Shown piece by piece: positions 3,970 to 17,389 of a DNA stretch of 25,487 bases (its first letter is position 1; the number at the start of each line of letters is the position of its first letter). The notes below the pieces were generated by a model, which worked only from the letters and a program-made list of their open reading frames with translations, ran no database searches and was not told the DNA's origin. Made by a program: the position numbers and the translations under genes. Source of the DNA: a virus. The stretch lies in the IMG/VR virus record IMGVR_UViG_3300021960_000463, positions 1 through 25,487 of that record. One strand, given 5' to 3'.

Positions 3970-5598
3970 TTATCTATCAAGTAATTGTTGCGTTTCTTGA
4001 AACCAAAGATAGTCCAAAGACGAATTATTTAGAGTATCAAGTGCGTCTTTTGGAGTTTCTACCAAAGGTTCTCCAGCTAAGTTGAAACTTGTATTTAAAA
4101 GTATACCATGTCCAGACAATTTTTTAAACTCTTGAAGAAGTTCATACAAATAACCATCGGACACAGTTTGAATTCTACAAGTATTATCTACATGAGTAAC
4201 TCCTGGTATTATATCAGATTTCACTGGAAAACACATAGTCATATAAGGACTCTTTTTGATCTTACCCATATCAAAGTAAATGTTTGCGTCCTCTTCCAAG
4301 ACTATGCAAGCAAATGGTCTATACCACTCCCTCTTCTTAATTCTATTTACAATCTCTTTTGCATCTACATTTAATGCATTGAATAATATAGAACGATTTC
4401 CTAAAGCTCTTTGTCCAGATTCAGCGAGTCCTTTATATACTGCAACTGACTTATTTTCATTCAATAAATTTGCAATTTCTTTTACAGAAGTACGAACACC
4501 TTTGTATGATGAAATATCGTAACGTGATCCATGAGTAAAAGTATCTTTGATGGGTTTTGGTACTTTATCTTCTAGTTGGATATATGCATTCATTGCAGCA
4601 CCAATACTTATACCATTATCATTACATAAAGGTTCAAAATAAAATTCTACGTCCGGGAATCTTTGCACATAATATTGATTTGCGACAACATTCATACCAT
4701 AACCACCAGAAATACATACTCTTTTTATTCCGGTCCTCTTTACGCAACCTTCTATTAGATCACCAACTGCCTTTTGTGTTTGTTGTTGAACCTCATAACA
4801 AAAATCTGCATGTAACTTATGGTTATCCTTTTTTATCTCTTTAACTGGGTTAGTCAAAAAGTTTTGAACTTGTCTAGAAGAATTTTTAAAAAAGTTATTG
4901 TTAAGGGTGTTCTTTTTTAGGAATAAATTTTTAAATAAATCATTCGAAGATCCATAAGAAGAGAGACCCATAGCCTTTCCACAATCGTGTGGGGTGTTTC
5001 CTATCAATATCGCTGCAATATCATAAACAGATCCTATACCAAAAATATTCTTACATTGACAATTTAGTACATTTTCTTCTGGATTATCATTTGTAGTCCA
5101 CATCTCCAAAAACTTTTGTTTATTAAATTCTGGAGGTAATACATCTTTTATTAAGTTTTTATGAAGTACAATTTTTTTTCTACCATAAAAATAAAAAATA
5201 CTTTCAACCTCTAGTAAATTGTCTTTTACTCTCGATCCTGCACCATCAACTACTACAACTAAACTATCATCAAACTTACTATTATAAAAAGCAAGAGAAG
5301 CATGATTTAGATGATGATCTTGTTGCAATATTAATTTTACTTTGGGATTATATTCCTTACATGTTTCGTATAATGTTGTTATTAGTTGATCTGGATAATT
5401 AAAATTGGATACGCAAATTGCATTCAATTTCCTTTTCAGTTTTGAAGCCATACCAGAAACCAAATCAAGTATAACCTTATCGTCATCATCATGTTTTTTT
5501 CTAGTGAATCTTTCTACTAGAAAATATTTTTTCAGATGACCATCTTCTAAAAGACAAATAGAAGCATCATGACACAAATGAACACTAAGTATTAACAT
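3970..5598 (-). CDS. Carbamoyltransferase, NodU/CmcH family
   Basis: This 542-residue protein has the full two-domain layout of NodU/CmcH/TobZ-type O-carbamoyltransferases. The N-terminal Kae1-like part has CHDASICLLEDG (residues 9-20), the metal-binding DHHLNHASLAFY (94-105), VVVVDGAGSR, and later the GGYGMNVVANQ and NDNGISIGAAMNAY segments. The C-terminal YrdC-like part shows GQRALGNRSILF, REWYRPFACIV and GILLNTSFNLAGEPLVETP. The family transfers a carbamoyl group from carbamoyl phosphate (through carbamoyl-AMP) to a hydroxyl of a sugar or antibiotic. Some phage members are reported to carbamoylate hydroxymethylated bases in DNA. Here the glycosyltransferase neighbours favour a sugar acceptor. 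It is the last gene of the glycan cluster and overlaps the GT25 gene by 7 bases. Confidence 0.93.
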   Translation of the reverse strand: MLILSVHLCHDASICLLEDGHLKKYFLVERFTRKKHDDDDKVILDLVSGMASKLKRKLNAICVSNFNYPDQLITTLYETCKEYNPKVKLILQQDHHLNHASLAFYNSKFDDSLVVVVDGAGSRVKDNLLEVESIFYFYGRKKIVLHKNLIKDVLPPEFNKQKFLEMWTTNDNPEENVLNCQCKNIFGIGSVYDIAAILIGNTPHDCGKAMGLSSYGSSNDLFKNLFLKKNTLNNNFFKNSSRQVQNFLTNPVKEIKKDNHKLHADFCYEVQQQTQKAVGDLIEGCVKRTGIKRVCISGGYGMNVVANQYYVQRFPDVEFYFEPLCNDNGISIGAAMNAYIQLEDKVPKPIKDTFTHGSRYDISSYKGVRTSVKEIANLLNENKSVAVYKGLAESGQRALGNRSILFNALNVDAKEIVNRIKKREWYRPFACIVLEEDANIYFDMGKIKKSPYMTMCFPVKSDIIPGVTHVDNTCRIQTVSDGYLYELLQEFKKLSGHGILLNTSFNLAGEPLVETPKDALDTLNNSSLDYLWFQETQQLLDR

Positions 5599-6452
5599 TT
5601 TTCTAAAAATTCCTCTATATCCTCTAATCTTACTCTTAGGGACATTTTATCATCATTTGGTTTTCCATAAGTGAAAAACTCTTCAAGTGAAAATTTATGA
5701 TGATATTTTCTCCACCACTGTGTAATTAATTTAGTACATATCATATCTATTGGAGACATCTTATGATTATTCTGTTCATTATCTCCACCAAGACGAACGT
5801 TTAAATTAAAAAGAGGAAGAGAGTATGTAATTCCAATATCGAATAATACATCATCTTGTATGATGTGTTTTTTACTATATCTTCTATGATAGGAGTTATC
5901 GCAGAATGTCAATCTATACTTACCATCCCGATATAACATGTCTTTTAACTTTTTTGCATACGAACGATTGATGAGATAAGCCGCAGCAGATCCAGCATTC
6001 GTTCTTTTATGTAAGAACATGGGGAAAGTCAACCCATCTGTTTGATATCTAGGACAATAATATAATTGAACACATTCCCAGTTTTCTGGCAGATTATTCT
6101 CAACGTAATCCCAATCAAAATTCCAATATTTTATATTATCCAAACAAAGGTCATCCTCCATGAGGATACATGTTTCTGATGGATGTTCATCATACCAATT
6201 TATCACTGTTTCGATATTGTTTATTGCAACCGACATCAAAGACAAACATTCAAGAATTCCGTCTTCGACTATCATATCTTTCCATTCATCATACTTTGAG
6301 ACATGATATTTTGATGCAGGAACCCGACGAAAATTGGTTATGCCCCAATAATCAAATTGATCTTCCATCCACCTTTTTCGATCAGTGCGATGATCTAGGT
6401 TTATGTAATAAACCAAAGGAAAATTTTTTAACTTATTTTCCAGATCCATCAT
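5592..6452 (-). CDS. GT25-like glycosyltransferase, copy 1 (type A)
   Basis: This 286-residue protein fits the LPS glycosyltransferase family 25 pattern. The opening strand VYYINLDHRTDRKRWMEDQF holds the donor-binding 'INLD.R.DR' motif, and the acidic EDD of CILMEDDLCLD (about residue 97) is the likely metal-nucleotide site. LINRSYAKKL and a C-terminal SLEEFFTYGKPND follow. It is of the same type as the copy at 9323-10147 (shared SETC..EDDLC, YWNFDW and NWECVQL), but its last 15 residues match the copy at 8485-9348. It starts with an ATGA overlap behind the amidinotransferase. The acceptor may be a glycan or, as in some GT25 proteins, a hydroxylated amino acid. Confidence 0.85.
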   Translation of the reverse strand: MMDLENKLKNFPLVYYINLDHRTDRKRWMEDQFDYWGITNFRRVPASKYHVSKYDEWKDMIVEDGILECLSLMSVAINNIETVINWYDEHPSETCILMEDDLCLDNIKYWNFDWDYVENNLPENWECVQLYYCPRYQTDGLTFPMFLHKRTNAGSAAAYLINRSYAKKLKDMLYRDGKYRLTFCDNSYHRRYSKKHIIQDDVLFDIGITYSLPLFNLNVRLGGDNEQNNHKMSPIDMICTKLITQWWRKYHHKFSLEEFFTYGKPNDDKMSLRVRLEDIEEFLEKC

Positions 6453-7411
6453 TCTCTTTCAAGATCCAAAGTGACACAATGGAAAATACCACTCAGAGTT
6501 CTACCATGTCTCATAGGAAGCATTGCACACTCAATACCGTGTTTTTCCAGTTCTTTCCTAGTTGGTTCCTGATGTTCTTCTAAAGCAACTAAATTTGGGT
6601 TGACACTGAAAAGGTTCATATTCACCCATTCCGAAGCATGATTATATCCAGGATAATATCCAATATCTACTGGTTCTGGACACCACACTACATCCCACTT
6701 TCTAAAAGGTTCTGGTAAAACATCGACAGACTTGATTCTCTCAGGATTTAACAACATTAGTCCTTCACGGAGAAATGCAATCGTCGTATCTATATGCATG
6801 TAACTATAGACACCTTGAAGAAGATGCACTTTTGCACGGTCTTTGAGCATTTCTTGCAGTAAATTAGCTCCTGCAACATTTCCACTATTAGAGACAAGAT
6901 ACAAGATGTCGTCATTTGCACGAAGTACGTTGGCTGCATCAAAAGCAGGAGTAACTTCAGTAAGTGCAAGAGTGTCTTTATCGCCTACACACTCCTCATT
7001 ATACAGTCCCTCAACGTCCTTACAGGGAACAATAATCGTAGAGTCTAGTCTATCTATAATGGGTCGCCAGGCGTCTCTCCGACACTTTAGAGGCATCGGT
7101 GTAGCTACTGTTAGATCCTTATGTGTGAAAATAACGTCTCTTGGGCAGAAATTATAATAATCCGTGGGAGTTCTCTTTGGACGCACAACCTCTACATTTT
7201 CCCCAAGAAGAAAACTCACAAATTTTTCCAGATCTTCGTTGGCTTCGTCTATTACTTGTTTGGGGTATGGTCCAACAGGAACGTCTGAAACGTCTTTCCT
7301 GTCAGCATAGTTAATTGTGCGAACACTCAAGTCTACTTCAGGAACTGTTGCATAGTCCGCAACTCCCACTACTACTTTTTTTAATTTATCCCATTCATTC
7401 TGACTTTTCAT
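6449..7411 (-). CDS. Amidinotransferase (glycine/inosamine amidinotransferase family)
   Basis: This 320-residue protein contains every catalytic element of the amidinotransferase family: the Arg-Asp pair in CPRDVIF (Asp 92), the second Asp in PAFDAANV (158), the His in YMHIDTT (206) and the nucleophilic Cys in GIFHCVTLDLERE (312). These correspond to Asp170, Asp254, His303 and Cys407 of human glycine amidinotransferase. Members move an amidino group from arginine to an amine, giving guanidino compounds such as guanidinoacetate or N-amidino-scyllo-inosamine. It is shorter than the vertebrate enzyme and closer to the bacterial size. It is coupled by ATGA overlaps to a 2OG oxygenase upstream and a GT25 gene downstream. 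An amino sugar made by the nearby aminotransferase is a natural acceptor candidate (inference). Confidence 0.92.
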   Translation of the reverse strand: MKSQNEWDKLKKVVVGVADYATVPEVDLSVRTINYADRKDVSDVPVGPYPKQVIDEANEDLEKFVSFLLGENVEVVRPKRTPTDYYNFCPRDVIFTHKDLTVATPMPLKCRRDAWRPIIDRLDSTIIVPCKDVEGLYNEECVGDKDTLALTEVTPAFDAANVLRANDDILYLVSNSGNVAGANLLQEMLKDRAKVHLLQGVYSYMHIDTTIAFLREGLMLLNPERIKSVDVLPEPFRKWDVVWCPEPVDIGYYPGYNHASEWVNMNLFSVNPNLVALEEHQEPTRKELEKHGIECAMLPMRHGRTLSGIFHCVTLDLERE

Positions 7412-7908
7412 CGCACAATACCAGTAATTTGAACCGCATATCTATCAGTCATACTAAAATTATAAAAAGCGTGTTCATCATCATATCTCCAGTAAAAACA
7501 TTCACCAGCATTCCATTTACAATATGCAGTATCTTTAACCTGTAGGATTTGTCCAGGAGAACTATCCTCCAACATTACCATACACCTTATAACTTTCTTA
7601 GAATCGACTTTATTTAATTCTATGTACTTTCCATACAAATCGGTGTGAAGTGGCAAATACTGTCCAGGTTTAAAATAATTAACGGCAGCAGCAACGTTGT
7701 CCAAATCTGAGAAATGAGGAATAATATAATTTTCCACACAATTAGGCATAGGATTTGGCATCTGATATTTGTAAATAGACAGTTTCTGTTTACTGTGACC
7801 AGAATGCAAATATTTTCTTACTAGTTCCTCATCCTTATGTGTAGATAGAATATAGTCGAGACCATGAAATTCTCTTATGTCCCAATTTGGTCTTATGTGC
7901 GTGATCAT
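7408..7908 (-). CDS. 2OG-Fe(II) oxygenase-like protein (HTD type)
   Basis: I choose the ATG at 7908, which overlaps the previous stop as ATGA, giving 166 residues. An earlier ATG at 7956 would overlap the aminotransferase by 52 bases. The metal motif appears as YLPLHTDLYGKY (HxD), and the distal His and 2-oxoglutarate Arg in EHAFYNFSMTDRYAVQITG. The strand between (GQILQVKDTAYCKWNAGECFYW) fits the core jelly roll. The shape resembles aspartyl/asparaginyl-hydroxylase-like or small phage hydroxylases. It lies between the aminotransferase and amidinotransferase genes in the glycan cluster, so it may hydroxylate a cluster product or a fibre residue. Confidence 0.75.
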   Translation of the reverse strand: MITHIRPNWDIREFHGLDYILSTHKDEELVRKYLHSGHSKQKLSIYKYQMPNPMPNCVENYIIPHFSDLDNVAAAVNYFKPGQYLPLHTDLYGKYIELNKVDSKKVIRCMVMLEDSSPGQILQVKDTAYCKWNAGECFYWRYDDEHAFYNFSMTDRYAVQITGIVR

Positions 7909-8492
7909 TTGAATACAGACATCTCCTTTAACTCTGGGTAATCCCTGGCCGTCCATTTTTTTGCCGGAGATTTTTTTCGACTTTTTAGTAGCTCAATACC
8001 GATTTTCGCCACCTCTGGTGTCATGTAGTAATGATAACCGATACTAGTTATGTCTTGTTCAGCCCATGGACGAGAAAGATCACGACCATCATAAGACATC
8101 TTCTTTAACGCATCACGATCATCCTTATTTTGCAGGAGAATCATTCCACCACGACCAAGGTTCAAATGTTTCTTGAATTGAAAACTAAGACACATGAAGG
8201 TATTTGGAAGATATGAACCTTCTTCCCAAAGAACTGCAGCATCAATAATTGTACTGTTTCCGAGATGATAATAGTCAGACCACTCATCTTCTTTCCATTC
8301 CCAATTTAAACCAAGTTTCATACACGTCATTGGAACTGAAATATACGTTCTTGTTGGGATGGTAATATTATTATATCCAGTATATCTCAAACACAGTTCG
8401 ATAGCATGAGTACAACAGTCAGTAGCAACTGCATACGGAGAACCGAAGAACTCAGCAATTTGTGACTCAAATTCAGTAACGTACTCAAACAT
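7905..8492 (-). CDS. Short DegT/DnrJ/EryC1/StrS-type aminotransferase
   Basis: The ATG at 8492 gives 195 residues; a TTG at 8513 is the only longer choice. PLP-fold signatures of the sugar aminotransferase family are present: FFGSPYAVATDCCTHAIEL (N-terminal phosphate-binding region), IPTRTYISV, the Asp of STIIDAAVLW (Asp 84) that contacts the pyridine nitrogen, and the lysine of LSFQFKKHLNLGRGGM (Lys 108). YHYYMTPEVAKIGIELLKSR matches the 'NYRMTeiqAAiGl.QL..l..' segment. Full-length members have about 370 residues. This one stops right after that segment and so lacks the C-terminal domain. It may still make an amino sugar, need a partner, or be a remnant. The frame shows no internal damage. 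Confidence 0.85.
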   Translation of the reverse strand: MFEYVTEFESQIAEFFGSPYAVATDCCTHAIELCLRYTGYNNITIPTRTYISVPMTCMKLGLNWEWKEDEWSDYYHLGNSTIIDAAVLWEEGSYLPNTFMCLSFQFKKHLNLGRGGMILLQNKDDRDALKKMSYDGRDLSRPWAEQDITSIGYHYYMTPEVAKIGIELLKSRKKSPAKKWTARDYPELKEMSVFK

Positions 8493-9348
8493 CTTCCAGT
8501 TCCCTCGGAACAATTATTCTATCATTTGGTTTACCATAAGTAAAGAACTCTTCTAGAGTGTAATCATCTCTTAGTTCTGTCCACCACTTCATACAAGCTT
8601 TATAAGAAAACTCCAGGTCAACTCTTTCTTTTTTTCTATCAATATTTTGAGCCCAACTTCCGAGATTTTGATTGACAGAAATTAAGGGCATACAATAAGT
8701 CTTTCCGTTGTGACCAAGAAAATAATCTGTAGTGAAGTTGGGCATATTCAACCCAGCATAAGACCACTTATAATTGGAATGTTTTTGGGAAAGATCAAAC
8801 TTACCATCCTTGTAGTGGAGACTTATAATCTTCTCCGCATACCTTCTATTGATTAATGAAGCACCAGTATCATGACCGGATAAGATTGGATGTAGGAAAC
8901 ATGGCATGAGTTTTTCATTTTCAAAACTCATTTGAATACAATCCCAATCATAAGGAATATTATTCATCAAATATTCCCAATCAAAATGCCAGTATTCAAT
9001 GAAACTGAGATCGTAATCATCCTCCATGATGATTACATAAGGATCATTCGTAGTCTCTAACCAGTTTTTGATGTTTACTAAGTGAGCAAGAGTTATAGAC
9101 AGTTCTGCAATGTGCCAATTTTTTCTCTTGTATCCTTCTGGAAAAGGATTCAAAATAACTAAGTCTTTCCAATAGTCTTCATAAGTAGAGAGTTGATACT
9201 TTGACCCAGAGACCACAGTGTAGTCTTTGATTCCCCAATAATCATACTGAGTCTCAGCATATTCTCTTTTATCTGGCCTTTCATCAATGGTCGCAAGAAT
9301 GATTGGAGGAAGTCCTTTGAGTTTATTTTTTAGATTCATGAGTGACAT
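8485..9348 (-). CDS. GT25-like glycosyltransferase, copy 2 (type B)
   Basis: The product is 287 residues with the GT25 layout, but its first motif is altered: ILATIDERPDKREY replaces the usual YYLNLD.R.DR. The acidic site is intact (VIIMEDDYDLSFIEYWHFDW), followed by IPYDWDCIQMSF and LINRRYAEKI. These features pair it with the copy at 10131-10943. Its C-terminus TLEEFFTYGKPNDR instead matches the type A copy at 5592-6452, at the DNA level too, suggesting exchange between copies. Two in-frame ATG codons (9348 and 9339) could start it. The altered first strand might change donor use. Confidence 0.83.
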   Translation of the reverse strand: MSLMNLKNKLKGLPPIILATIDERPDKREYAETQYDYWGIKDYTVVSGSKYQLSTYEDYWKDLVILNPFPEGYKRKNWHIAELSITLAHLVNIKNWLETTNDPYVIIMEDDYDLSFIEYWHFDWEYLMNNIPYDWDCIQMSFENEKLMPCFLHPILSGHDTGASLINRRYAEKIISLHYKDGKFDLSQKHSNYKWSYAGLNMPNFTTDYFLGHNGKTYCMPLISVNQNLGSWAQNIDRKKERVDLEFSYKACMKWWTELRDDYTLEEFFTYGKPNDRIIVPRELEDV

Positions 9349-10147
9349 CCAGAATTAATTTCTTTCTCTTAGAGGAATTCAAGTAAAAGAGATCGTCCAA
9401 AGTATATTGTGAGGATTTTGTTTTCCACCAATCTAGAACCAATTTATCACAAGTTCTTGACATGACATTTACATTACCATTCCTAAGGCCATCACTTATG
9501 AAGTTGTAATTAGTAGTAAGTGTTGGAATTGAATAAGTCACTCCTATCTGATAGAGAACAAAGTCTACAGACTGATAGTGATACTCTGGCCAATTTTCAT
9601 TATATCCATAATTAGAATATAATTTGAATTTATTATCTATGTAATGAAGTTTGATTAGTTTTTCTGCATATGACCTATTGATCAGTACACATCCTGTAGA
9701 GTGATTATTATGTGTCCACTTGGAAAGATTCATCTTAATGAAGTTCTCACCAATAATGTGTAGCTGAACGCACTCCCAGTTGCAAGGTAAACTATCAACT
9801 AAAGTTTTCCAGTCAAAGTTCCAATACTCAACGGCATCAAAACACAAATCATCTTCGACTATCAGACAAGTCTCAGACTCATTGGAATTATACCAATCAA
9901 TTATACCATGAATCCTATCAACTAAAGTGGCAAGAAACCATACCTCAGTGCGAAGTCTATCTGTTATGACTCTTGACCTCCATTCTTCATAATTATCTAC
10001 AGAATATCTCGAAGAGTTAACTCTATGATAATTAGTTATCCCATAGTCAGAGAATTGTTTCTCTATATGTTCTCTCCGATCTATTCTGTTATCTAGATTA
10101 AAATAATATATTGGCGGAAGACCAACCAACTTAGTCTTCGTCATCAT
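9323..10147 (-). CDS. GT25-like glycosyltransferase, copy 3 (type A)
   Basis: This 274-residue GT25-like protein has YYFNLDNRIDRREH as the nucleotide-sugar strand and CLIVEDDLCFDAVEYWNFDW as the acidic site. NWECVQL and LINRSYAEKLIKLHY follow. It is closest in the window to the copy at 5592-6452. The C-terminus differs (TLDDLFYLNSSKRKK instead of the FFTYGKPND ending) and ends in a basic tail. It overlaps its neighbours on both sides by 17-26 bases, showing tight translational coupling. Substrate unknown. Confidence 0.84.
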   Translation of the reverse strand: MMTKTKLVGLPPIYYFNLDNRIDRREHIEKQFSDYGITNYHRVNSSRYSVDNYEEWRSRVITDRLRTEVWFLATLVDRIHGIIDWYNSNESETCLIVEDDLCFDAVEYWNFDWKTLVDSLPCNWECVQLHIIGENFIKMNLSKWTHNNHSTGCVLINRSYAEKLIKLHYIDNKFKLYSNYGYNENWPEYHYQSVDFVLYQIGVTYSIPTLTTNYNFISDGLRNGNVNVMSRTCDKLVLDWWKTKSSQYTLDDLFYLNSSKRKKLILDVTHESKK

Positions 10148-10943
10148 GATATGTTTTTACACGTTCTATCATTTTATAATCGTGTTCTTTACTATAAGAA
10201 AAGAAATCATCCAAAGTAAAATTATCTCTCTTGTTCTGCCACCAATCATAGTAGATATCTCTACAGAGAAAATGATGTTTCTTAGGTACTTTGTCTAGAT
10301 AAGGATTCTGAGTTATCAAAGGTATTTGATATGTTTTACCAAGAAAAGGAATATGTTCATCCAGTGAGACGACACGATATCCAGTGTCAAATGGATGAGG
10401 ACCATACTTTCTAATCAACATGTACTTGTCTTTAACATAGTGCAGATTGATCAACTTCTGAGCAAAATGTCTATTGATTAATATTGGCCCGTATCCAGTC
10501 CACCTATCTTTCGGGGACAAAAAGAACATAAGATAATGTTGAGATTCGAATCCTAATTGAACGCAATCCCAATCGTATGGGATTCTTTTCATCAGATATT
10601 CCCAGTCAAAGTGCCAATACTCTATCAGATTTAAATCGTAATCATCCTCAAAAAGGATCAGATGTTTTTCATCGGTAGTATCAAGCCAATGTTTAATGAT
10701 CTCAAGAGTAGACAGAGTGATTGCAGATATCAATCTCTGACCTCTTCTATTAATAGCTTGTGGAAAATGCAACTTGTCTTTCCAACTATCATAGTCATCA
10801 ACAAGGTACTTTGATCCGGAGAATCTTTTTACATTTGTAAGATTCCACTTATCAAATTGTTTTTCCATATATCTTCTTCTATCTACTTCTGAATCTAGAT
10901 TTAGATAGTAAATGCTTGGAATTCCCTTGAGTTTATCAGACAT
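10131..10943 (-). CDS. GT25-like glycosyltransferase, copy 4 (type B)
   Basis: This 270-residue protein starts with GIPSIYYLNLDSEVDRRRY and carries LILFEDDYDLNLIEYWHFDW at the metal site. IPYDWDCVQLGF and LINRHFAQKLINLHY follow. It matches copy 2 (8485-9348) over the EDDYDL to DWDC stretch almost residue for residue. The end reads TLDDFFSYSKEHD, then an acidic HDDED tail. It is the first GT25 gene of the run and starts within the last codons of the two-domain oxygenase gene. Confidence 0.84.
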   Translation of the reverse strand: MSDKLKGIPSIYYLNLDSEVDRRRYMEKQFDKWNLTNVKRFSGSKYLVDDYDSWKDKLHFPQAINRRGQRLISAITLSTLEIIKHWLDTTDEKHLILFEDDYDLNLIEYWHFDWEYLMKRIPYDWDCVQLGFESQHYLMFFLSPKDRWTGYGPILINRHFAQKLINLHYVKDKYMLIRKYGPHPFDTGYRVVSLDEHIPFLGKTYQIPLITQNPYLDKVPKKHHFLCRDIYYDWWQNKRDNFTLDDFFSYSKEHDYKMIERVKTYHDDED

Positions 10944-12123
10944 ACCAGGTGATAATAGAATAACGAGTTCCAGAAGTTACTGGTAAAATTTCATGAGGGA
11001 ACATAAAGTTTGAGGGGAACATCACGATAGATCCTTTACCACCTCTTATCATAATTTCTCTATCAAAAAATGCAAATTCACCACCCTCATAGTCATCATT
11101 GAGTAGGAAAGAACAACTTACAGATCTCTGTTGGGCTTTGAAAGAGTCGGTATGTTGAATATAAAATTGACCAGTTCTATATCTCAAAAGATCATATCCG
11201 GTGTCACTTTCCGAAGCAACTTCAGGAAATAATTTCCTATATTCATTTATTGCATTTGAAGCACAAATATAGAAATCATTATCTAATTGTCTTCTCACTT
11301 CTGGGTTCTGTTCGACTACCACTTCTTGTGAAATATTAACAATATCGCAATTTCTGATTTCGCTATTGGTATCACCATAACCTATGCTAGTAGGAGTCCA
11401 AAAAGAACACTCACGATATTCTTCTAGTATTCTATCACAGAGTTCTTCTGGAACAACATTTTCCAATGTGAAAATGTAATCTTCTAAACTTTTTTTACCA
11501 TTTGCAGAAGAAACTATTCTTTCTGGTTCTTTTTCTTCAGATACGGGTTCTTCCACAACTGATTTTTTTTCCTCTGGTTTAGTATTTTCTTGAAGTTTAT
11601 CGAAGTATGCATAAGAACAGTCTCCACGACTCCTAACGTAATGTAGGAATACCTGAGTGTAATATTCTCCACCATACTCTTCTCTCCAATGTGGGGCTTT
11701 CTTTCCCAGATAAACCATAGCTTCTCCAGGATTAAGATCCACCTTAACCTCTTCACCAGATGGAGTCTCGATCCATATTGGCCAAGTTTGGTCACCATGA
11801 AGATGGAGAGTCAGTGAAATTTCACAAGCATCCCTATCCGTATGTCTCGTTAAAACACTACCATTTTTATAAATTCTAGCGTAACTATAGGTAGGCAATA
11901 CAGTTTCACCAATTGCCTTGGAAACTTCTGGAGTCTTTTCGCAAAGCAATTCTAGAAAAGGAGTATAGTTATAAGTAGAAAAAGAGTTTGGAGCCTGAGG
12001 ATCTCCATCTATATTATTTTCCTTACAGTATTTTGTAAATTCAAAAGAAAGTTTTGAAGCCCTATCTTTTGAAATAAAGTCGTGAAGAATAATGTAGTTA
12101 TTGTCTTCTAAAGTTTTTTTCAT
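10936..12123 (-). CDS. Two-domain 2OG-Fe(II) oxygenase / prolyl-4-hydroxylase-like
   Basis: From the ATG at 12123 (a TTG at 12129 is less likely) the protein has 395 residues and two oxygenase domains. Domain 1 (about 1-175) shows RHTDRDACEISLTLHL (His94, Asp96) and APHWREEYGGEYYTQVFLHYV (His145). An acidic, Lys/Glu-rich linker follows (about 180-212). Domain 2 (213-395) is P4H-like, with QFYIQHTDSFK (His324, Asp326), MFPHEILPVTSGTRYSIITW (His377, Arg387) and SFLLNDDYEGGEFAF. The family uses 2-oxoglutarate and O2 to hydroxylate proline, lysine or sugars. Since some GT25 enzymes glycosylate hydroxylysine, a hydroxylate-then-glycosylate pathway on a protein is conceivable (inference). Confidence 0.87.
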   Translation of the reverse strand: MKKTLEDNNYIILHDFISKDRASKLSFEFTKYCKENNIDGDPQAPNSFSTYNYTPFLELLCEKTPEVSKAIGETVLPTYSYARIYKNGSVLTRHTDRDACEISLTLHLHGDQTWPIWIETPSGEEVKVDLNPGEAMVYLGKKAPHWREEYGGEYYTQVFLHYVRSRGDCSYAYFDKLQENTKPEEKKSVVEEPVSEEKEPERIVSSANGKKSLEDYIFTLENVVPEELCDRILEEYRECSFWTPTSIGYGDTNSEIRNCDIVNISQEVVVEQNPEVRRQLDNDFYICASNAINEYRKLFPEVASESDTGYDLLRYRTGQFYIQHTDSFKAQQRSVSCSFLLNDDYEGGEFAFFDREIMIRGGKGSIVMFPSNFMFPHEILPVTSGTRYSIITWYV

Positions 12124-12138
12124 AATCAAAAATCAGGT

Positions 12139-12594
12139 TCAAATTTCTTTCAAAAGTTCCTCAATGTCGTAGTAAAGATCTTCTTCTTCTTCACTTTCTT
12201 CGGTATCTTCTTCACCTTCTTCTTTTGGATTATATGCAAGGTGAGTTCTGTTAAAGTCAAGCATTGTTTCTTGCATTGCCGCGTCCAGTTCTTTCTGCAT
12301 TCTAGCGGCAGATTCTTCTTCGAGTCTTATGAACTCAAGTTCTTGATCACGTTTTTCTTGCCACTGACTAATAGCCTTTAAAAAAGAAACCACATTGTCT
12401 ATACCGAAACTAGTAATTGGAACTGGATGTGCAGGTCCAACAAACTCTACCTCGCCCTCTCCTGTTTCATCATCCCAATGAACAGCATGAATCTCTTTTC
12501 CATCAACATCTGGAATCCAAGATAGGTCAATATCAAAATAAGAGATACCGTCAACACCAACTACGTTGTCACTGGGAATTATATGCACTTTCAT
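12139..12594 (-). CDS. Possible tail-fibre assembly chaperone, 151 aa
   Basis: The N-terminus (MKVHIIPSDNVVGVDG, then SWIPDVDGKEIHAVHWDDETGEGEVEF) resembles the beta-rich opening of phage tail-assembly chaperone-like proteins, which often follow fibre genes. A long coiled-coil helix comes next (ISQWQEKRDQELEFIRLEEE up to about residue 110). The protein ends in a very acidic tail (EEGEEDTEESEEEEDLYYD). The ATG at 12594 has GGGAG upstream. Its place two genes after the fibre proteins supports the chaperone idea, but I have no firm family match. Confidence 0.6.
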   Translation of the reverse strand: MKVHIIPSDNVVGVDGISYFDIDLSWIPDVDGKEIHAVHWDDETGEGEVEFVGPAHPVPITSFGIDNVVSFLKAISQWQEKRDQELEFIRLEEESAARMQKELDAAMQETMLDFNRTHLAYNPKEEGEEDTEESEEEEDLYYDIEELLKEI

Positions 12595-12597
12595 ATC

Positions 12598-12951
12598 TTA
12601 TTCTCCCGATTTTGATTCTGGTAATGTGTTTGTGTTTGTACTAGTTAAGGAAGTTACGTTAACTGGCATTATGCCAGTTTGTTGAAGACCTTCAATATAT
12701 AGTTGTCTATTCTCATCATTCGATTTTACAACTTCATTTCTGAATGATTCAACGGCAGCTCCAGTCTGTCTCTGTTGTTGAGAATTTTCAATGGTTAACA
12801 TAGGCATCCAAGATACTGCACATCCCCAATGATCAACATCTTCTCCAGTGTTGGGATCCATTCCCCTAATGTGCATGTACCAAGAACATTTGTGTTCTAC
12901 ACAATCTTTCTTAATTAGAGGACAAAAATTTCCAGACTGATTCTTTTTCAT
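12598..12951 (-). CDS. Conserved phage protein with Cys cluster, 117 aa
   Basis: Near the N-terminus four cysteines are arranged as FCPLIKKDCVEHKCSWY and, later, HWGCAVSW, which could bind zinc or an Fe-S cluster. RQTGAAVESFRNEVVKSNDE forms a helix, and the C-terminal third is Thr/Ser-rich (VTSLTSTNTNT). I recall similar short proteins with the same 'NQSG.FCPLIK..C' opening near structural genes of marine phages. No enzyme function is evident. Confidence 0.75.
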   Translation of the reverse strand: MKKNQSGNFCPLIKKDCVEHKCSWYMHIRGMDPNTGEDVDHWGCAVSWMPMLTIENSQQQRQTGAAVESFRNEVVKSNDENRQLYIEGLQQTGIMPVNVTSLTSTNTNTLPESKSGE

Positions 12952-12977: not shown

Positions 12978-13001
12978 AGAATAAATTAATTGAAACTGCA
13001 A
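12973..13001 (-). promoter_or_regulatory. Possible sigma70-like promoter
   Basis: A perfect -10 TATAAT (12973-12978) lies 17 bases from a poor -35 TTGCAG (12996-13001), ahead of the 117-residue gene. In such AT-rich DNA the -10 could occur by chance, so this is tentative. Confidence 0.35.
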
Positions 13002-13498
13002 ACAATAACATCCATGTACTGAAGTCTCATATCAAAAGATCCAGTAAAATTACAAGTTCCGGACCAAGGGTGATTGTGAGCTCCACCACCTCCAGTCGGG
13101 CCTGTATCTGGTGTAGAACGAGTCCAACCAGCGCCTGAACCTACATCACCACCACCAGGAGTCAACCTAGTAGCTGCATTTGGGTGAGTGTGTGATGCAA
13201 TTTGTGGGGCGGTTAAAGTATGATTACCAACACTACCAGTCATTGGTACACCTGGTTGTGATACTGGTCTAAGAGAAGTAGGAAATATAGTACTAAATGA
13301 TGATGAACCCCCAGTACCCCCACCAGTACCGCTGACTACTCGTAATGCTTTATTATTATTTGTAGTAGATTTAGTCCATCCAGTTGGAGCAGCTGCTTGG
13401 AAAAAAATACTTACAGAACTTTGCGGAATAATTCCATAATATGAATTTAGATTAGTACTATCACTAAATCTTACTCCAGATGCTGTTAAAGAAGCCAT
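12986..13498 (-). CDS. Tail-fibre/collar-type protein, copy 1 (HxH)
   Basis: This 170-residue Gly/Ser/Thr-rich protein has a short N-terminal 'SGVRFSDSTNLNS' segment, then a tail-collar-like opening (IFFQAAAPTGWTK, compare the 'APxGWL' motif of phage collar proteins). Two His-x-His sites follow (ASHTHPN near residue 103 and AHNHPWS near residue 142). In T4 short tail fibre gp12 such HxH sites bind iron on the trimer axis, so a trimeric metal-stabilised tip is likely. The end LQYMDVIVCSFN matches the adjacent paralogue. A late promoter octamer lies 35 bases upstream. It is probably a receptor-binding or decoration fibre. Confidence 0.85.
   Translation of the reverse strand: MASLTASGVRFSDSTNLNSYYGIIPQSSVSIFFQAAAPTGWTKSTTNNNKALRVVSGTGGGTGGSSSFSTIFPTSLRPVSQPGVPMTGSVGNHTLTAPQIASHTHPNAATRLTPGGGDVGSGAGWTRSTPDTGPTGGGGAHNHPWSGTCNFTGSFDMRLQYMDVIVCSFN
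13374..13405. repeat. 32-base direct repeat, copy in fibre 1
   Basis: These 32 bases are identical to 13978-14009 in the neighbouring fibre gene. They encode the shared QAAAPTGWTK region, and the identity is higher than elsewhere in the two genes. They mark a recent duplication or an exchange site. Confidence 0.8.
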
Positions 13499-13532: not shown

Positions 13533-13540
13533 TATTTATC
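13533..13540 (-). promoter_or_regulatory. Late promoter octamer GATAAATA
   Basis: On the minus strand this reads GATAAATA, matching the NATAAATA late motif. It lies 35 bases before the ATG of fibre copy 1 and overlaps the last codons of fibre copy 2. The position is typical for a T4-like late gene. Confidence 0.7.
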
Positions 13541-14105
13541 CATTGAAACTACAGACAAGAACATCCATATATTGAACACCCAAAGAAAAAGTTACACTTA
13601 TAGCTTTAGTTATACTAAGTGGATGGGTGTGATTTGTTGCTGGTGAAGCAGCGTTTCCTGTGACGGGTGAGGGAACATTTCTGGTCCATCCACCGGCTCT
13701 TCTAAGATCCCCACCATTCCATCCAGTAAACTGGCCAGCGGGATTGTACAGTGCTGGAACGGCAGCAACTACAAATCTACCAGGTTGTGGGTGTACGTGA
13801 GCGGGAAGATTTGGTGCAGTGAGTGGAGCCCCACCAGTGGCATTAGTTGTCTGAAGATTTCCAGCATATGCGAATGTTGGACTTAAAACTGTTGTGAATG
13901 GTTGAGTTCCGCCAGAACCACCACCACTAGTTCCACTTACAACTCTTAAAGCTTTATTGTTATGAGTAGTTTGTTTTGTCCATCCAGTTGGAGCAGCTGC
14001 TTGGAAAAACAGCATATCAGTTCCAGTAGGAATAATACCTCTTTTTGAATTTAGCGAAGTACCATCACTAAAATTTATTCCAGTTGATGTTAGTTTTGCT
14101 GCCAT
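13536..14105 (-). CDS. Tail-fibre/collar-type protein, copy 2 (HxH)
   Basis: This 189-residue paralogue of the downstream fibre gene has the same order of parts: 'SGINFSDGTSLNSKRG' opening, LFFQAAAPTGWTK, KALRVVSGT, a Gly-rich linker, LPAHVHPQP (about residue 100), NHTHPLS (about residue 163) and the ending VQYMDVLVCSFNG. The middle, between the two HxH sites, differs most in sequence and length, as expected for a receptor-binding loop region. It has its own late promoter (TATAAATA) and no clear Shine-Dalgarno sequence. It probably forms a metal-binding trimer on the tail or capsid. Confidence 0.85.
   Translation of the reverse strand: MAAKLTSTGINFSDGTSLNSKRGIIPTGTDMLFFQAAAPTGWTKQTTHNNKALRVVSGTSGGGSGGTQPFTTVLSPTFAYAGNLQTTNATGGAPLTAPNLPAHVHPQPGRFVVAAVPALYNPAGQFTGWNGGDLRRAGGWTRNVPSPVTGNAASPATNHTHPLSITKAISVTFSLGVQYMDVLVCSFNG
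13978..14009. repeat. 32-base direct repeat, copy in fibre 2
   Basis: Identical to 13374-13405, 604 bases away, in the same position of the paralogous gene. Confidence 0.8.
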
Positions 14106-14843: not shown

Positions 14844-14872
14844 AGTATACTATGTATTTCAGTTTTTATCAA
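14844..14872 (-). promoter_or_regulatory. Sigma70-like promoter TTGATA-17-TATACT
   Basis: The -35 TTGATA (14867-14872) and -10 TATACT (14844-14849) are spaced by 17 bases. The -35 overlaps the stop codon of the radical SAM gene. It would start transcription near 14837, just ahead of the ATG at 14818. Confidence 0.7.
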
Positions 14873-16110
14873 GTCTTTGGTCTGACTTTAATAACATCCC
14901 AAATTCTTTGGAACTCTGGAAAGGTTTCAATAACATTCTCATTCCGTATCTTATCAAACCTTCTCATTGAATCTAAGAACTGAGGTAAAAGTTTTTGTTC
15001 TTGATACAGATCAATGTAAGTAAGAAGACTTTCATAAAAAACAATAGACCTCTTTGCCTTATTGGGAATTAAAAATTCTTTGATGTGTCTTCTTATATTT
15101 TCTTTTGCGGCTTCTTTTGTTTTTTTATCCAAAATCCAAACTGTTTGTTCTCTAGGAGTTTGCATGAAATTCAGGAAGAAGAAGTCAACATTCTTCATCA
15201 GTCCACTATTATAAAGGTATTGATGTAAGTCAGTTACTTCAAAAATATTCAGAGCTTGGACTGTGCAATCAAAATGAAGTTCATGAGTACGTTCTTTATG
15301 TTTGAATCTTTCTCTGAATTGTTCGGCATGAGAAACAAATCGGTCCCAATTGAATCCCTTTCGGATCAGTTCGCCCTTCTTACCCATACCGTCCACGCTG
15401 ATGTGGACTTGCAACTCTCTATTGAAGTTGTCCCACAGATCAAAGATATGTCTACCTTTATAAACAAGGTTACTGAAGTTACTGTTGTATGCTAGGACAA
15501 CATCATTGTTTCGTTTCAACTCAATGAGTTTGTCCATGATCTTCCAGTGTTCATCAATGATTAAGGACTCTCCACCAGAAAAATATAGACTATTAACCAT
15601 TCCAAGATAAGGTTCTACCTGTTCATAAGTCTTCTCAGCAGCATCCCACTTACCAGAAATCTTACCAAACTGTTCGAGTTCCCAACTAGAACTCGATGTC
15701 CAGTGACACATCCTACACTTGAAGTTACACTTACTACTTAACTTCAAGTCCCACCAGATAAACCCAGGTTCATTTACCGAAAAGTCATCGTTAGTTTCAT
15801 AGACAAACTTCTTATACAGATGAAATAGATCCCTGTTGAAATCCTGTCTGAGAGAACTCTTCCCTGCGGCTTGATTATTATAACAAACCTCACAACTCTT
15901 ATGAGGTGTTCCGTTTATCATACTCTCTCGGAATTTTTTGATGGGTTCATCATTCCAAATTTCCCAAAGAGATTTTTCTTTCACATGACCATATGTGTAC
16001 TCAGAAATACAACATGGTTTTACTTCACCATCCTGTCTAACATCCAGACACATCCAAGGAGCAACACAGAATACATCGTTATTCAAATCAATCTTCTTCT
16101 TATCGATCAT
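14869..16110 (-). CDS. Radical SAM protein with N-terminal twitch/SPASM-like domain, copy B
   Basis: From the ATG at 16110 (GTG at 16113 possible) the protein has 413 residues. The radical SAM cluster motif CxxxCxxC is in SSKCNFKCRMCHW (Cys 128, 132, 135), and YFSGGES (about 176-182) is the SAM-binding GGE. Ahead of it is a Cys-rich domain: CVAPWMCLDVRQDGEVKPCC (Cys 15, 21, 33, 34) and CEVC (73, 76), followed by SSLRQDFN. These are the hallmarks of an auxiliary Fe-S 'twitch/SPASM' module, here before rather than after the barrel. It overlaps its paralogue upstream. The substrate is unknown; related enzymes modify peptides or small molecules. Confidence 0.9.
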   Translation of the reverse strand: MIDKKKIDLNNDVFCVAPWMCLDVRQDGEVKPCCISEYTYGHVKEKSLWEIWNDEPIKKFRESMINGTPHKSCEVCYNNQAAGKSSLRQDFNRDLFHLYKKFVYETNDDFSVNEPGFIWWDLKLSSKCNFKCRMCHWTSSSSWELEQFGKISGKWDAAEKTYEQVEPYLGMVNSLYFSGGESLIIDEHWKIMDKLIELKRNNDVVLAYNSNFSNLVYKGRHIFDLWDNFNRELQVHISVDGMGKKGELIRKGFNWDRFVSHAEQFRERFKHKERTHELHFDCTVQALNIFEVTDLHQYLYNSGLMKNVDFFFLNFMQTPREQTVWILDKKTKEAAKENIRRHIKEFLIPNKAKRSIVFYESLLTYIDLYQEQKLLPQFLDSMRRFDKIRNENVIETFPEFQRIWDVIKVRPKT

Positions 16111-17389
16111 CACTCCAAATCCTCTCTAATTCTGGGAACACTTCTCTTGAGTTTTCATTCCTCAATACATCTAATGCAGACATGTATGATTTAAACTCTG
16201 GAATCAGGTGTTCTTTTCTCTCAGTAGAAAGCAATTTAAGAATAGACATGTATTGATTAATAGAAGCCTGGGCTTTTGCAGGAACAAGATAATTTTTAAT
16301 ATGATATTTAATTTTTTCTCCCAATAATTTTCTCGATTCCGAATCAAGAATCAAAACAGAAAGCATGTCTGGATTATGTAGAGTACATAACTCAAAATCA
16401 TCCCAATCAGTAATTATACCCCTAAGATAAAGTTCTTTTTGAGCATCCATGACATGGAAACAATTCAAAGCTTGTATCACAAAATTAATCTTTATCCTTT
16501 TGTTGGGAAATTTATTCCTAAACATTTTAAAGTTATCTAAAAACTTTTGCCAATCAAATCCTTTACGAATTATTTCTCCCCTTCTCTCCGTTCCATCAAA
16601 ACTTACTGAAATATTAAGCTTTGGAAATTGTTTCCAGAGGTGAAGAACATCATTGTCTTTATATTTCAAGGTACTAAAATTAGTGTTATAACAAATATCA
16701 ACTTTTTTATTTCTACCCTTCTCAATAAGTTTATTTAAAATTTTATAGTGGTGATCTGAAATTAAAGGTTCGCCGCCAGCAAAATATACATTCTCAACAA
16801 TATCATATAGAGGTTCAATATCTTCATGAACCATATCCACATCAATCTTTGGATACTCTCCTTCGATATTAAATTTCTTCCTCATTTCCTGATCCCAAGA
16901 ACTACTGTAACCAGGTCCACACATCCTACACCTAAAATTACAGACGTTATTTAATCTAAAATCCCAATAAACAAGATTGAACCTTTCGAAAGTTCCATCT
17001 TCCTTAGTCTCTTCGACATACTTATGGTGATCTATCCAAAACGAATTAAAGTCTTGTCTTGAAGAAATTTTTCCAATCTCTTCCTCTTTATAACATGAAG
17101 TACAGTAACTACACTCCTTACCCTCGATCATGTTTCTACGAAGTTCTCGCATTTTTTCATTGTTCCAAATTTCTTTAAGAGATGAATCTCTTAAAGAACC
17201 CATTCTGAAGTCTCTAGGATCTCCACTACATTCGGTAGAAACAATTTCCAAAGGTGACATCTCATTGTTTTCCTCTGGTTCTGGTTCGGACAAAGGCATC
17301 AAACAACATGGATAAACATCACCATTCGGTGCAATGTTCATATGAACCCATGGGGCCATGCAAAAAGTATTATTATTAGGTATAGTCAT
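16100..17389 (-). CDS. Radical SAM protein with N-terminal twitch/SPASM-like domain, copy A
   Basis: This 429-residue paralogue of the next gene has the same layout: CMAPWVHMNIAPNGDVYPCC at residues 10-29, a loop insert of about 30 residues (PEPEENNEMSPLEIVSTECS), then CSYCTSC (93-99), SSRQDF, the radical SAM CxxxCxxC in NNVCNFRCRMCG (150, 154, 157) and VYFAGGEPLI. Each copy conserves C-terminal INQYMSILKLL / VFYESLLTYID and FPELERIW / FPEFQRIW segments. It is tied to the DUF6356-like gene by an ATGA overlap and a strong GGAGG. Two different but related enzymes in a row suggest sequential or heterodimeric action. Confidence 0.9.
   Translation of the reverse strand: MTIPNNNTFCMAPWVHMNIAPNGDVYPCCLMPLSEPEPEENNEMSPLEIVSTECSGDPRDFRMGSLRDSSLKEIWNNEKMRELRRNMIEGKECSYCTSCYKEEEIGKISSRQDFNSFWIDHHKYVEETKEDGTFERFNLVYWDFRLNNVCNFRCRMCGPGYSSSWDQEMRKKFNIEGEYPKIDVDMVHEDIEPLYDIVENVYFAGGEPLISDHHYKILNKLIEKGRNKKVDICYNTNFSTLKYKDNDVLHLWKQFPKLNISVSFDGTERRGEIIRKGFDWQKFLDNFKMFRNKFPNKRIKINFVIQALNCFHVMDAQKELYLRGIITDWDDFELCTLHNPDMLSVLILDSESRKLLGEKIKYHIKNYLVPAKAQASINQYMSILKLLSTERKEHLIPEFKSYMSALDVLRNENSREVFPELERIWSDDR

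What the first reader, a model, noticed from the sequence alone, without database searches (positions are those of the whole stretch)
3970..12123. Phage glycan cluster with amidino, carbamoyl, amino and hydroxyl transfer in one operon
In one tight operon lie a two-domain hydroxylase, three GT25-like genes, a DegT-type aminotransferase, a second hydroxylase, an amidinotransferase with its full catalytic set, a fourth GT25 gene and a carbamoyltransferase. Amidino plus carbamoyl plus amino groups recall streptomycin- or nodulation-factor-like sugar decoration. A phage carrying a guanidino-sugar-like or hydroxy-amino acid glycan pathway would be notable.
Basis: partly seen in the sequence, partly recalled or inferred. 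Interest (0 to 1): 0.72.

Follow-up and report, generated by a model that had tools for sequence, protein, structure and literature searches.

The report
Phage guanidino-sugar glycan gene cassette
Many phages, marine cyanophages among them, carry a small linked set of genes that most likely makes an unusual sugar bearing an arginine-like (guanidino) group, and in phages like this one it sits next to tail-fibre genes and sugar-attaching enzymes, so it may decorate the virus particle.

Summary
All nine genes are present on one strand, joined by 4-26-base overlaps once likely starts are used. The amidinotransferase (AMT) is StrB-like, with catalytic Asp, His and Cys in 64 of 64 sequences. The aminotransferase is a miniature (about 195 aa) with an NDP-sugar-aminotransferase fold and invariant PLP residues.

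The conserved core is smaller than the operon: mini-DegT, a small 2OG oxygenase (HYD) and AMT. Both partners lie within 8 kb of AMT in 61 of 67 phage clusters, down to a lineage whose AMT is 36% identical to this one. Carbamoyltransferase (26 of 67) and GT25-like genes (44 of 67) are add-ons. Context is sugar-nucleotide: 49 of 91 mini-DegT clusters have a GDP-mannose-4,6-dehydratase-type gene instead of AMT and HYD; two AMT genes overlap such a gene; 25 of 67 AMT clusters have a nucleotide-sugar dehydrogenase relative.

Best reading: a viral guanidino-sugar pathway, here probably serving tail-fibre-type proteins. No step is shown biochemically; sugar, acceptor and target are inferred. Against: two AMT clusters show no sugar gene among scanned neighbours, and a bacterial relative sits in an amino-acid operon. 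I found no description of this cassette in the papers searched.

The parts
6449..7411 (-). Amidinotransferase (AMT), StrB-like, 320 aa; D158, H206, C312 catalytic by alignment
   Evidence: PDB 1bwd E 3.3e-57 over residues 4-319; profile E 2.5e-78; D158/H206/C312 in 64 of 64 rows
7408..7908 (-). HYD: small 2OG-Fe(II) oxygenase (ORF open from 7956; many homologues start at the ATG corresponding to 7908)
   Evidence: H104, D106, H162, R172 (ORF numbering) invariant in 22 of 22; AlphaFold pLDDT 89.6; 2OG oxygenase fold, VIA Z 14.4, rmsd 3.1 over 151 residues
7905..8492 (-). Mini-DegT aminotransferase, about 195 aa (ORF open from a TTG at 8513; likely ATG at 8492)
   Evidence: PF01041 E 4.3e-16; D91, S110, Q112, K115 in 61 of 61; model pLDDT 92; Foldseek best 3dr4 GDP-perosamine synthase E 9.7e-10; VIA Z 19.4, rmsd 3.1 over 192 residues to sugar transaminase 7b0d
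8485..9348 (-). GT25-like glycosyltransferase c
   Evidence: phrog_2835 E 1.1e-36; EDD motif aligned with its three paralogues; no Pfam match
9323..10147 (-). GT25-like glycosyltransferase b
   Evidence: phrog_2835 E 8e-37; PF01755 E 0.0044, below cut-off
10131..10943 (-). GT25-like glycosyltransferase a
   Evidence: phrog_2835 E 8.1e-34; PF01755 E 0.027, below cut-off
5592..6452 (-). GT25-like glycosyltransferase d
   Evidence: phrog_2835 E 1.5e-38; PF01755 E 0.05, below cut-off
3970..5598 (-). O-carbamoyltransferase (TobZ/NodU type), accessory
   Evidence: PF16861 E 2.9e-51, PF02543 E 1.5e-21; PDB 7xb6 E 3.4e-39, TobZ E 1.1e-38; near 26 of 67 AMT clusters
10936..12123 (-). OX2: two-domain 2OG oxygenase, C-terminal half prolyl-4-hydroxylase-like (PF13640)
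   Evidence: PF13640 E 1.6e-18; in the AMT cluster representatives 25 of 25 full-length copies are directly followed by a GT25-like gene
12986..13498 (-). Tail-fibre-type protein, candidate target of the glycan
   Evidence: 50% identical to S-SCSM1 'tail fiber protein (virion protein)'; a gene of this type lies within 3 kb upstream of OX2 in 21 of 22 cases with room
13536..14105 (-). Paralogue of the tail-fibre-type protein
   Evidence: shared sequence motif; its match is in 36 of 80 AMT-seeded loci
12139..12594 (-). Conserved hypothetical between tail genes and cassette
   Evidence: kept at this place in many loci
12598..12951 (-). Conserved hypothetical between tail genes and cassette
   Evidence: kept at this place in many loci

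Best explanation
The core is a phage pathway for a guanidino amino sugar. Inferred order: a nucleotide sugar is oxidised to a keto sugar; the mini-DegT aminotransferase puts an amino group on the keto carbon; AMT moves the amidino group of arginine onto that amine, giving a guanidino sugar (ornithine released). In the relatives without AMT the keto sugar would come from a GDP-mannose-4,6-dehydratase-type enzyme. In nearly all AMT loci that gene is absent and HYD stands in its place, often with a nucleotide-sugar dehydrogenase relative, so HYD probably takes part in making the keto sugar or in tailoring the product. In this cyanophage-type cluster the four GT25-like enzymes then place the sugar, most likely on tail-fibre-type proteins hydroxylated by OX2, and the carbamoyltransferase caps a hydroxyl. 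Shown by sequence or model: enzyme families, catalytic residues, linkage, sugar-nucleotide context. Inferred: the sugar, the acceptor, the order of steps, HYD's reaction and the virion target.
For: AMT: StrB-like, catalytic set complete. Mini-DegT: NDP-sugar aminotransferase fold, PLP residues invariant. Linkage: DegT and HYD both within 8 kb of AMT in 61 of 67 clusters by representative, 62 of 67 if any member counts. The same dehydrogenase, DegT, HYD, AMT order, with small genes between, occurs in a lineage (L296-L298) with AMT 36%, DegT 42% and HYD 27% identical to the window. Sugar context: of 91 mini-DegT clusters 49 have a GDP-mannose-4,6-dehydratase-type gene within 6 kb and neither AMT nor HYD, 38 have AMT and HYD and no such gene (unchanged when only dehydratase matches below E 1e-50 count). 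AMT overlaps such a gene by 4 bases in L037 and L038, after a 2OG oxygenase fusion nearest to NCBIfam's 'sporadic carbohydrate cluster' families and a WbuC-type cupin. An AMT 97.5% identical sits with mini-DegT and HYD in L035 and L115 but with mini-DegT and the dehydratase in L036. A nucleotide-sugar dehydrogenase relative is near AMT in 25 of 67 clusters and in 17 of 27 hand-picked divergent loci. Virion target: OX2 followed by GT25 in 25 of 25, tail-type gene upstream in 21 of 22; the S-SCSM1 relative of that tail gene is annotated as a virion protein.
Against: Two of the 67 clusters (L287 with L292; L289) have AMT with no DegT, HYD or sugar gene among the neighbours scanned (6 of L287's, 3 of L289's); L287 has a DNA polymerase B next door. 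A bacterial AMT relative, 41% identical (L168), lies by PALP and ornithine-cyclodeaminase-type genes and an adenylation protein, an amino-acid setting. The phage AMTs form their own clade, not with StrB. The dehydratase-linked mini-DegTs are largely one clade, so the dehydratase versus AMT/HYD split is about one switch, not many, and the loci were seeded from each branch. The dehydratases of L036-L038 score below NCBIfam's GMD cut-off (374-379 against 415 bits), the oxygenase fusion below its two cut-offs. L036 is a 6-kb contig, so a HYD outside it is possible. The window holds no keto-sugar maker that I recognised, and the complete S-SCSM2R genome has no convincing GDP-mannose dehydratase (best PF16363 E 3.5e-24). 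S-SCSM1 has OX2 beside its tail fibre genes but no annotated glycosyltransferase or triad there. S-SCSM2R's own cassette has no tail-type gene upstream. A 200-aa DegT lacks most of the usual C-terminal domain, so activity is not certain.
Confidence: 0.58

Rival explanations
1. Same guanidino-sugar chemistry, but the glycan goes onto the host envelope (O-antigen or capsule) to block other phages or grazers, not onto the virion.
For: Cyanophage glycan clusters have been read this way (PMC7824862, passages). S-SCSM2R has a separate LPS-like cluster with UGDH, epimerases and GTs. Only 30 of 67 AMT clusters show OX2 and 21 of 67 a tail-type gene within 8 kb, many on short contigs.
Against: In window-type loci the cassette runs on from tail-fibre-type genes and a protein-hydroxylase-like enzyme. 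No flippase or polymerase was recognised among the neighbours scanned; not all were scanned.
Confidence: 0.25
2. AMT acts on an amino acid (for instance a diamino acid) or on a peptide or protein side chain; the product is a guanidino amino acid or metabolite and the sugar genes are neighbours only.
For: The bacterial relative in L168 lies beside PALP and OCD genes that resemble diaminopropionate synthesis (naming recalled) and an adenylation protein; Campylobacter phage AMT lies among radical SAM genes without DegT or HYD; L287/L292 and L289 show no sugar genes among those scanned.
Against: No PALP or OCD gene turned up among the phage neighbours that I scanned with Pfam; the usual partner has an NDP-sugar aminotransferase fold; AMT overlaps a GDP-mannose-dehydratase-type gene in L037/L038.
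Confidence: 0.15
3. DNA hypermodification: carbamoyl, amidino and sugar groups are put on modified bases.
For: Phage carbamoyltransferases that act on 5-hydroxymethylcytosine exist (PMC8670742, passages).
Against: In that paper the co-occurrence of carbamoyltransferase with thymidylate synthase was found only in modified contigs, and in unmodified contigs carbamoyltransferases were flanked by genes such as glycosyltransferases. PF00303 is in 0 of 14 records tested, one a complete genome. Neighbours here are tail and sugar-nucleotide genes. The paper's three diagnostic residues could not be scored from the text I saw.
Confidence: 0.03
4. Mini-DegT is an inactive or regulatory remnant, and AMT serves arginine or creatine-type metabolism.
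For: The protein is about half the usual length; an ocean virus survey lists a creatine-pathway gene (PMC11360552, passages).
Against: D91, S110, Q112 and K115 are invariant across 61 rows, which a remnant would not be expected to keep; AMT is nearer to StrB than to glycine amidinotransferase (E 2.5e-78 against 1.8e-45); the triad is linked over very distant lineages.
Confidence: 0.05

Closest known systems
StrB / inosamine-phosphate amidinotransferase (streptomycin pathway), PDB 1bwd
   Same: Best solved relative, aligned nearly full length, same catalytic residues, about 39% identity; works with a DegT-family aminotransferase in its pathway (StsC, recalled)
   Different: Phage AMTs form a separate clade; no inositol-phosphate synthase (0 of 23); the aminotransferase is half-length; a 2OG oxygenase is the usual third partner
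GDP-perosamine synthase and other DegT NDP-sugar aminotransferases (ArnB, WbpE, DesI)
   Same: Fold and PLP residues; in one branch a GDP-mannose-4,6-dehydratase-type gene nearby, mostly next door
   Different: About 195 aa instead of about 365; shortened middle and most of the C-terminal domain gone; in the window's branch HYD and AMT instead of the dehydratase
Pseudomonas aeruginosa WbpA-WbpB-WbpE route to 2,3-diamino uronic acids (recalled)
   Same: Nucleotide-sugar 6-dehydrogenase, oxidation at a ring hydroxyl, DegT amination, nitrogen decoration
   Different: A 2OG oxygenase would stand where WbpB does and AMT where WbpD acetylates; the dehydrogenase relative has Tyr and Met at two Glu positions in 27 of 27 distinct copies
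TobZ/NodU carbamoyltransferases; phage 5hmC carbamoyltransferase (PMC8670742)
   Same: Both Pfam domains; HHxxHA, GQRALG and LNTSFN motifs
   Different: Thymidylate synthase PF00303 not found in 14 records; an accessory, near 26 of 67 clusters
Campylobacter Firehammervirus amidinotransferase cluster (CP220)
   Same: A phage amidinotransferase beside putative sugar transferases
   Different: 25% identity, radical SAM genes instead of DegT and HYD
Cyanophage glycan and secondary-metabolite clusters described for jumbo phages (PMC7824862)
   Same: Cyanophage sugar clusters; a second kind with carbamoyltransferases and 2OG oxygenases
   Different: The words amidino and aminotransferase do not occur in its main text

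Membership tests
StrB/AGAT amidinotransferases | Catalytic Asp-His-Cys set in a full-length enzyme | tested here: met
   D158, H206, C312 in 64 of 64; 1bwd aligned over residues 4-319
StrB (inosamine-phosphate type) | Groups with StrB in a tree | tested here: not met
   22 phage rows form a clade (95/89; bootstrap not fully settled); StrB lies among cellular rows
StrB (inosamine-phosphate type) | Inositol-derived substrate pathway in the same genome | tested here: not met
   PF07994 in 0 of 23 records, most of them fragments, one complete genome
StrB (inosamine-phosphate type) | Acts on scyllo-inosamine 4-phosphate | not testable with these tools
   needs an enzyme assay
DegT/DnrJ/EryC1/StrS aminotransferases | PLP lysine, aspartate and flanking motifs | tested here: met
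   D91, S110, Q112, K115 in 61 of 61; PF01041 59.5 bits against 19.8
DegT/DnrJ/EryC1/StrS aminotransferases | Full-length two-domain subunit of about 360 aa | tested here: not met
   about 195-235 aa in complete members
GDP-perosamine synthase | Linked GDP-mannose 4,6-dehydratase | tested here: not met
   such a gene in 49 of 91 mini-DegT clusters but in none of the 38 with AMT and HYD; none recognised in the window
2OG-Fe(II) oxygenases (HYD) | HxD...H iron triad and 2OG-binding Arg on a double-stranded beta-helix | tested here: met
   22 of 22; fold matches
Aspartyl/asparaginyl beta-hydroxylase PF05118 | Score above the curated cut-off | tested here: not met
   19 bits against 22.6
Glycosyltransferase family 25 PF01755 | Score above the curated cut-off | tested here: not met
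   13.9, 14.8 and 17.3 bits against 24 for three genes, none for the fourth; phrog_2835 strong for all four
Nodulation/TobZ-type carbamoyltransferase | Carbam_trans N and C domains with motifs | tested here: met
DNA 5hmC carbamoyltransferase | Linked thymidylate synthase/hydroxymethylase | tested here: not met
   PF00303 in 0 of 14 records
DNA 5hmC carbamoyltransferase | Diagnostic residues at TobZ W408, G421, R423 | tested here: inconclusive
   the passages seen do not say which letters mark the DNA-acting class

The most novel reading that the evidence does not exclude
A virus-specific guanidino-sugar pathway in which a half-size sugar aminotransferase is fed by a 2-oxoglutarate oxygenase acting as a sugar oxidase in place of an NAD dehydratase, and the product, a guanidino (perhaps uronic) sugar, gives phage tail fibres an arginine-like positive charge on a glycan attached through hydroxylated residues, in a collagen-like way.
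Probability: 0.25. Interest if true: 0.87.

Novelty: new variant of a known kind. Interest (0 to 1): 0.67.

Why it matters
If right, guanidino sugars, which I know chiefly from actinomycete antibiotics (recalled), are made by many phages (226 IMG/VR stretches encode an AMT relative), and the smallest DegT sugar aminotransferases known to me are viral. It gives a testable chemical function to genes that databases label 'glycine amidinotransferase', 'ferrochelatase' or 'unknown function', and it warns virus AMG surveys that list such genes under creatine or amino-acid metabolism. A positively charged glycan on tail fibres would bear directly on how cyanophages bind hosts. The dehydratase-linked and AMT-linked branches of one small aminotransferase family give a clean comparative system for substrate choice.

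Tried and rejected
Tried and given up or corrected: (1) I guessed that the 364-aa protein of L036-L038 was a full-length DegT with a ketoisomerase; Pfam gave nothing and NCBIfam showed (L036, L037) a 2OG oxygenase nearest TIGR04324 fused to a part nearest TIGR04323, both below their cut-offs, and a WbuC-type cupin above its cut-off in L037 and L038. (2) I first suspected that CP220 gp085 was a HYD because it overlaps the amidinotransferase by 4 bases; the HYD profile gives 0.8 bits. (3) One search showed a dehydrogenase cluster in 19 of 27 hand-picked divergent loci; on recount two of these (L033, L036) hold other proteins and the figure is 17 of 27; 19 is withdrawn. (4) Inositol route: PF07994 0 of 23. 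(5) DNA hypermodification: PF00303 0 of 14; the paper's diagnostic residues could not be scored. (6) Megablast of the cassette and blastn of 14869-19200 against phage records found nothing, so relatives were found through proteins. (7) The PDB search used a limit (1e-40) too strict to inform; one search found nothing. (8) The C-terminal part of the fused HYD stays unidentified: no Pfam match for L146 and L291, no PHROG match for L146. (9) Papers: searches found no description of this cassette; only PMC text under open licences is held and no preprints. For PMC11360552, PMC2853527, PMC8670742, PMC9602691, PMC7824862 and PMC8226683 I saw search passages only; PMC10452541 gave no passage for the words asked; others are listings. 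(10) Counts: 123 mini-DegT clusters at 90% identity were made and 32 dropped for less than 4 kb flank before the 91-cluster table. In one search all 67 AMT clusters are counted by one representative each; the six misses are L287, L289, L036, L037, L038 and L129. In L129 a HYD lies elsewhere on the same contig (L163), and two other members of L036's cluster (L035, L115) do have both partners. One of the 61 (L288) shows only the start of a mini-DegT at its contig-piece end. Loci were seeded by five viral scans; some searches were cut at the best 80 of 226, 354 and 402, searches gave 19 and 8, so the proportions depend on the seeds. Dehydratase and dehydrogenase genes in the tables were called by phmmer from a few members; only L130, L152, L036 and L037 (dehydratase) and L070, L143 and L150 (dehydrogenase) were checked with Pfam, and L036-L038 with NCBIfam.

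Full report
What is there. The window is a 25.5 kb virus record whose recognised genes lie on the minus strand. With the likely ATG starts (mini-DegT at 8492, HYD at 7908) the junctions DegT/HYD, HYD/AMT and AMT/GT are all 4-base overlaps, which suggests translational coupling. The nearest relative among the phage records searched is Synechococcus phage S-SCSM2R, 70.5% identical in AMT. It has the same gene set apart from the carbamoyltransferase, plus a radical SAM gene inside the operon and a gene annotated as a family 2 glycosyltransferase; its record already names the AMT 'inosamine amidinotransferase'.

The amidinotransferase. Its best solved relative is StrB, inosamine-phosphate amidinotransferase (1bwd, E 3.3e-57). 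A profile of 21 phage members scores StrB at 2.5e-78 and glycine amidinotransferase at 1.8e-45. D158, H206 and C312 are kept in 64 of 64 aligned sequences. PHROGs list the family as unknown function (phrog_25854). In a tree with 27 rows from bacterial genome contigs, the 22 phage rows (CP220 apart) form one clade, separate from StrB and from the bacterial rows (the bootstrap had not fully settled). It is therefore StrB-like but not a StrB by descent.

The aminotransferase. The 'DegT' gene is a miniature. Complete relatives are about 195-235 aa, and D91, S110, Q112 and K115, which align with PLP-binding positions, are invariant in 61 of 61. AlphaFold gives pLDDT 92 from 24 sequences. Foldseek's best solved match is GDP-perosamine synthase (3dr4, E 9.7e-10). 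VIA-align gives Z 19.4 with rmsd 3.1 over 192 residues to a sugar transaminase (7b0d), and the 50 rows shown are DegT-family enzymes, mostly sugar aminotransferases. So this looks like a compact, probably active, NDP-sugar aminotransferase.

HYD and OX2. HYD keeps HxD...H and an Arg in 22 of 22 and has the 2OG-oxygenase fold (Z 14.4, rmsd 3.1 over 151 residues). OX2 has a PF13640 C-terminal domain. Its N-terminal half belongs to families that PHROGs call 'ferrochelatase', although it reads to me like a second 2OG-oxygenase domain.

What is conserved. Five scans of IMG/VR plus S-SCSM2R gave 148 loci with an AMT of at least 280 aa, or 67 clusters at 95% identity. Mini-DegT and HYD both lie within 8 kb in 61 of the 67 by representative. 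The six exceptions are L287 and L289 (neither partner), L037 and L038 (dehydratase instead), L036 (mini-DegT plus dehydratase) and L129 (HYD elsewhere on the same contig). L036 is telling: its AMT is 97.5% identical to that of L035 and L115, which do have mini-DegT and HYD; but L036 is a 6-kb contig. Carbamoyltransferase is near 26 of 67, GT25-like genes near 44 and OX2 near 30. A very divergent lineage (L296-L298; AMT 36%, DegT 42%, HYD 27% identical to the window) still has dehydrogenase, mini-DegT, HYD and AMT in that order with small genes between. The cassette is thus old and kept as a unit.

Why a sugar. Among 91 mini-DegT clusters with at least 4 kb of flank (32 others dropped), 49 have a GDP-mannose-4,6-dehydratase-type gene within 6 kb and no AMT or HYD; 38 have AMT and HYD and no such gene; one has HYD and a dehydrogenase, one a dehydrogenase alone, two none. 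The split is unchanged when only dehydratase matches below E 1e-50 count. On the mini-DegT tree the dehydratase-linked members fall mostly in one clade, so this is about one switch rather than many. In L037 and L038 AMT overlaps a GDP-mannose-4,6-dehydratase-type gene by 4 bases; its best NCBIfam match is TIGR01472 (374-376 bits, cut-off 415), and it follows a WbuC-type cupin and (scanned in L037) a 2OG oxygenase fusion nearest the 'sporadic carbohydrate cluster' models. A nucleotide-sugar dehydrogenase relative is near AMT in 25 of 67 clusters. All 27 distinct copies, 24 of them in loci with AMT, keep the Thr, Lys, Asn and Cys that align with human UGDH T131, K220, N224 and C276, but have Tyr and Met at E161 and E165, and one lacks the Asp at D280, so the reaction may be altered. 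The sugar could be a guanidino uronic acid, by analogy with the WbpA/B/E route (recalled), but that is a guess.

Where the sugar may go. In the AMT cluster representatives every full-length OX2 (25 of 25) is directly followed by a GT25-like gene, and a tail-fibre-type gene lies upstream in 21 of 22 with room to see it, the exception being S-SCSM2R. The closest record for that tail gene, S-SCSM1 (50% identity), is annotated 'tail fiber protein (virion protein)'. S-SCSM1 has tail genes and OX2 but no annotated glycosyltransferase and no triad there, so the cassette looks like an optional insertion at a tail-fibre locus. Hydroxylation followed by GT25 transfer recalls collagen hydroxylysine glycosylation (recalled); this is an inference.

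Against. L287/L292 and L289 show AMT without any sugar gene among the neighbours scanned, L287 beside a DNA polymerase B. The bacterial AMT relative in L168 lies beside PALP and ornithine-cyclodeaminase-type genes and an adenylation protein, which points to an amino-acid acceptor there; L169, L171, L172 and L174 have genes of similar length in the same places but were not scanned. Campylobacter phage AMTs lie among radical SAM genes. The complete S-SCSM2R genome has no convincing GDP-mannose dehydratase, so its keto-sugar source is unknown. Activity of a half-length DegT is unproven.

Novelty. In the papers searched I found amidinotransferase genes mentioned in phages only in passing (Campylobacter phages, PMC2853527, passages; a table line in PMC8226683, passage), carbamoyltransferases in cyanophage clusters (PMC7824862, passages), and no description of this triad, of a mini-DegT, or of viral guanidino sugars. 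I rate it a new variant of a known kind: known enzyme families in a virus-specific, miniaturised combination with a likely new product.

Noticed in passing
L158:7354-8247 (S-SCSM2R 213353-214246); also L035:3-1160, L115:997-2244: A second, very remote amidinotransferase (297 aa) beside KdsA/KdsB-annotated genes and 2OG oxygenases in S-SCSM2R; besides S-SCSM2R itself only two phage records match it. ORFs matching it also lie upstream of the triad in L035 and L115.
   Followed up: partly
L150:10881-12113, L070:8960-10165 and 25 other distinct copies: Nucleotide-sugar dehydrogenase subfamily linked to mini-DegT/AMT, with Tyr and Met at the positions of human UGDH E161 and E165 in 27 of 27 distinct copies.
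   Followed up: partly
window 10936-12129; phrog_3531; NC_070962 gp124: The OX2 family is labelled 'ferrochelatase' in PHROGs and RefSeq although it looks like a 2OG oxygenase; probable misannotation.
   Followed up: partly
L146:9501-11336, L275:8977-10761, L291:8997-10718: HYD fused to a C-terminal part of about 400 aa, lying between AMT and a carbamoyltransferase. Pfam found nothing in L146 or L291, PHROGs nothing in L146; L275 was not scanned.
   Followed up: partly
L184: A contig filed under a Chloroflexi MAG carries a 2OG oxygenase, AMT, mini-DegT, carbamoyltransferase and a tryptophan-halogenase-like gene; possibly a phage contig.
   Followed up: partly
window 14869-19156: Two SPASM radical SAM proteins (the one at 16100-17389 matches NF033640, E 2.2e-108), a DUF6356 protein and an AMP-binding ligase in overlapping succession.
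   Followed up: no
window 20111-20461: Mannose-6-phosphate-isomerase-type cupin (PF01050 E 8.4e-27), a kind of gene reported from cyanophage S-SCSM1.
   Followed up: no
L168 (similar layout in L169, L171, L172, L174): Bacterial operon of PALP, OCD, AMT and a large adenylation-domain protein (Pfam run on L168 only); looks like a guanidino-amino-acid natural product cluster.
   Followed up: no
L119: The window-type cassette has several genes broken into short ORFs in this contig, AMT and carbamoyltransferase included; sequencing error or decay.
   Followed up: no
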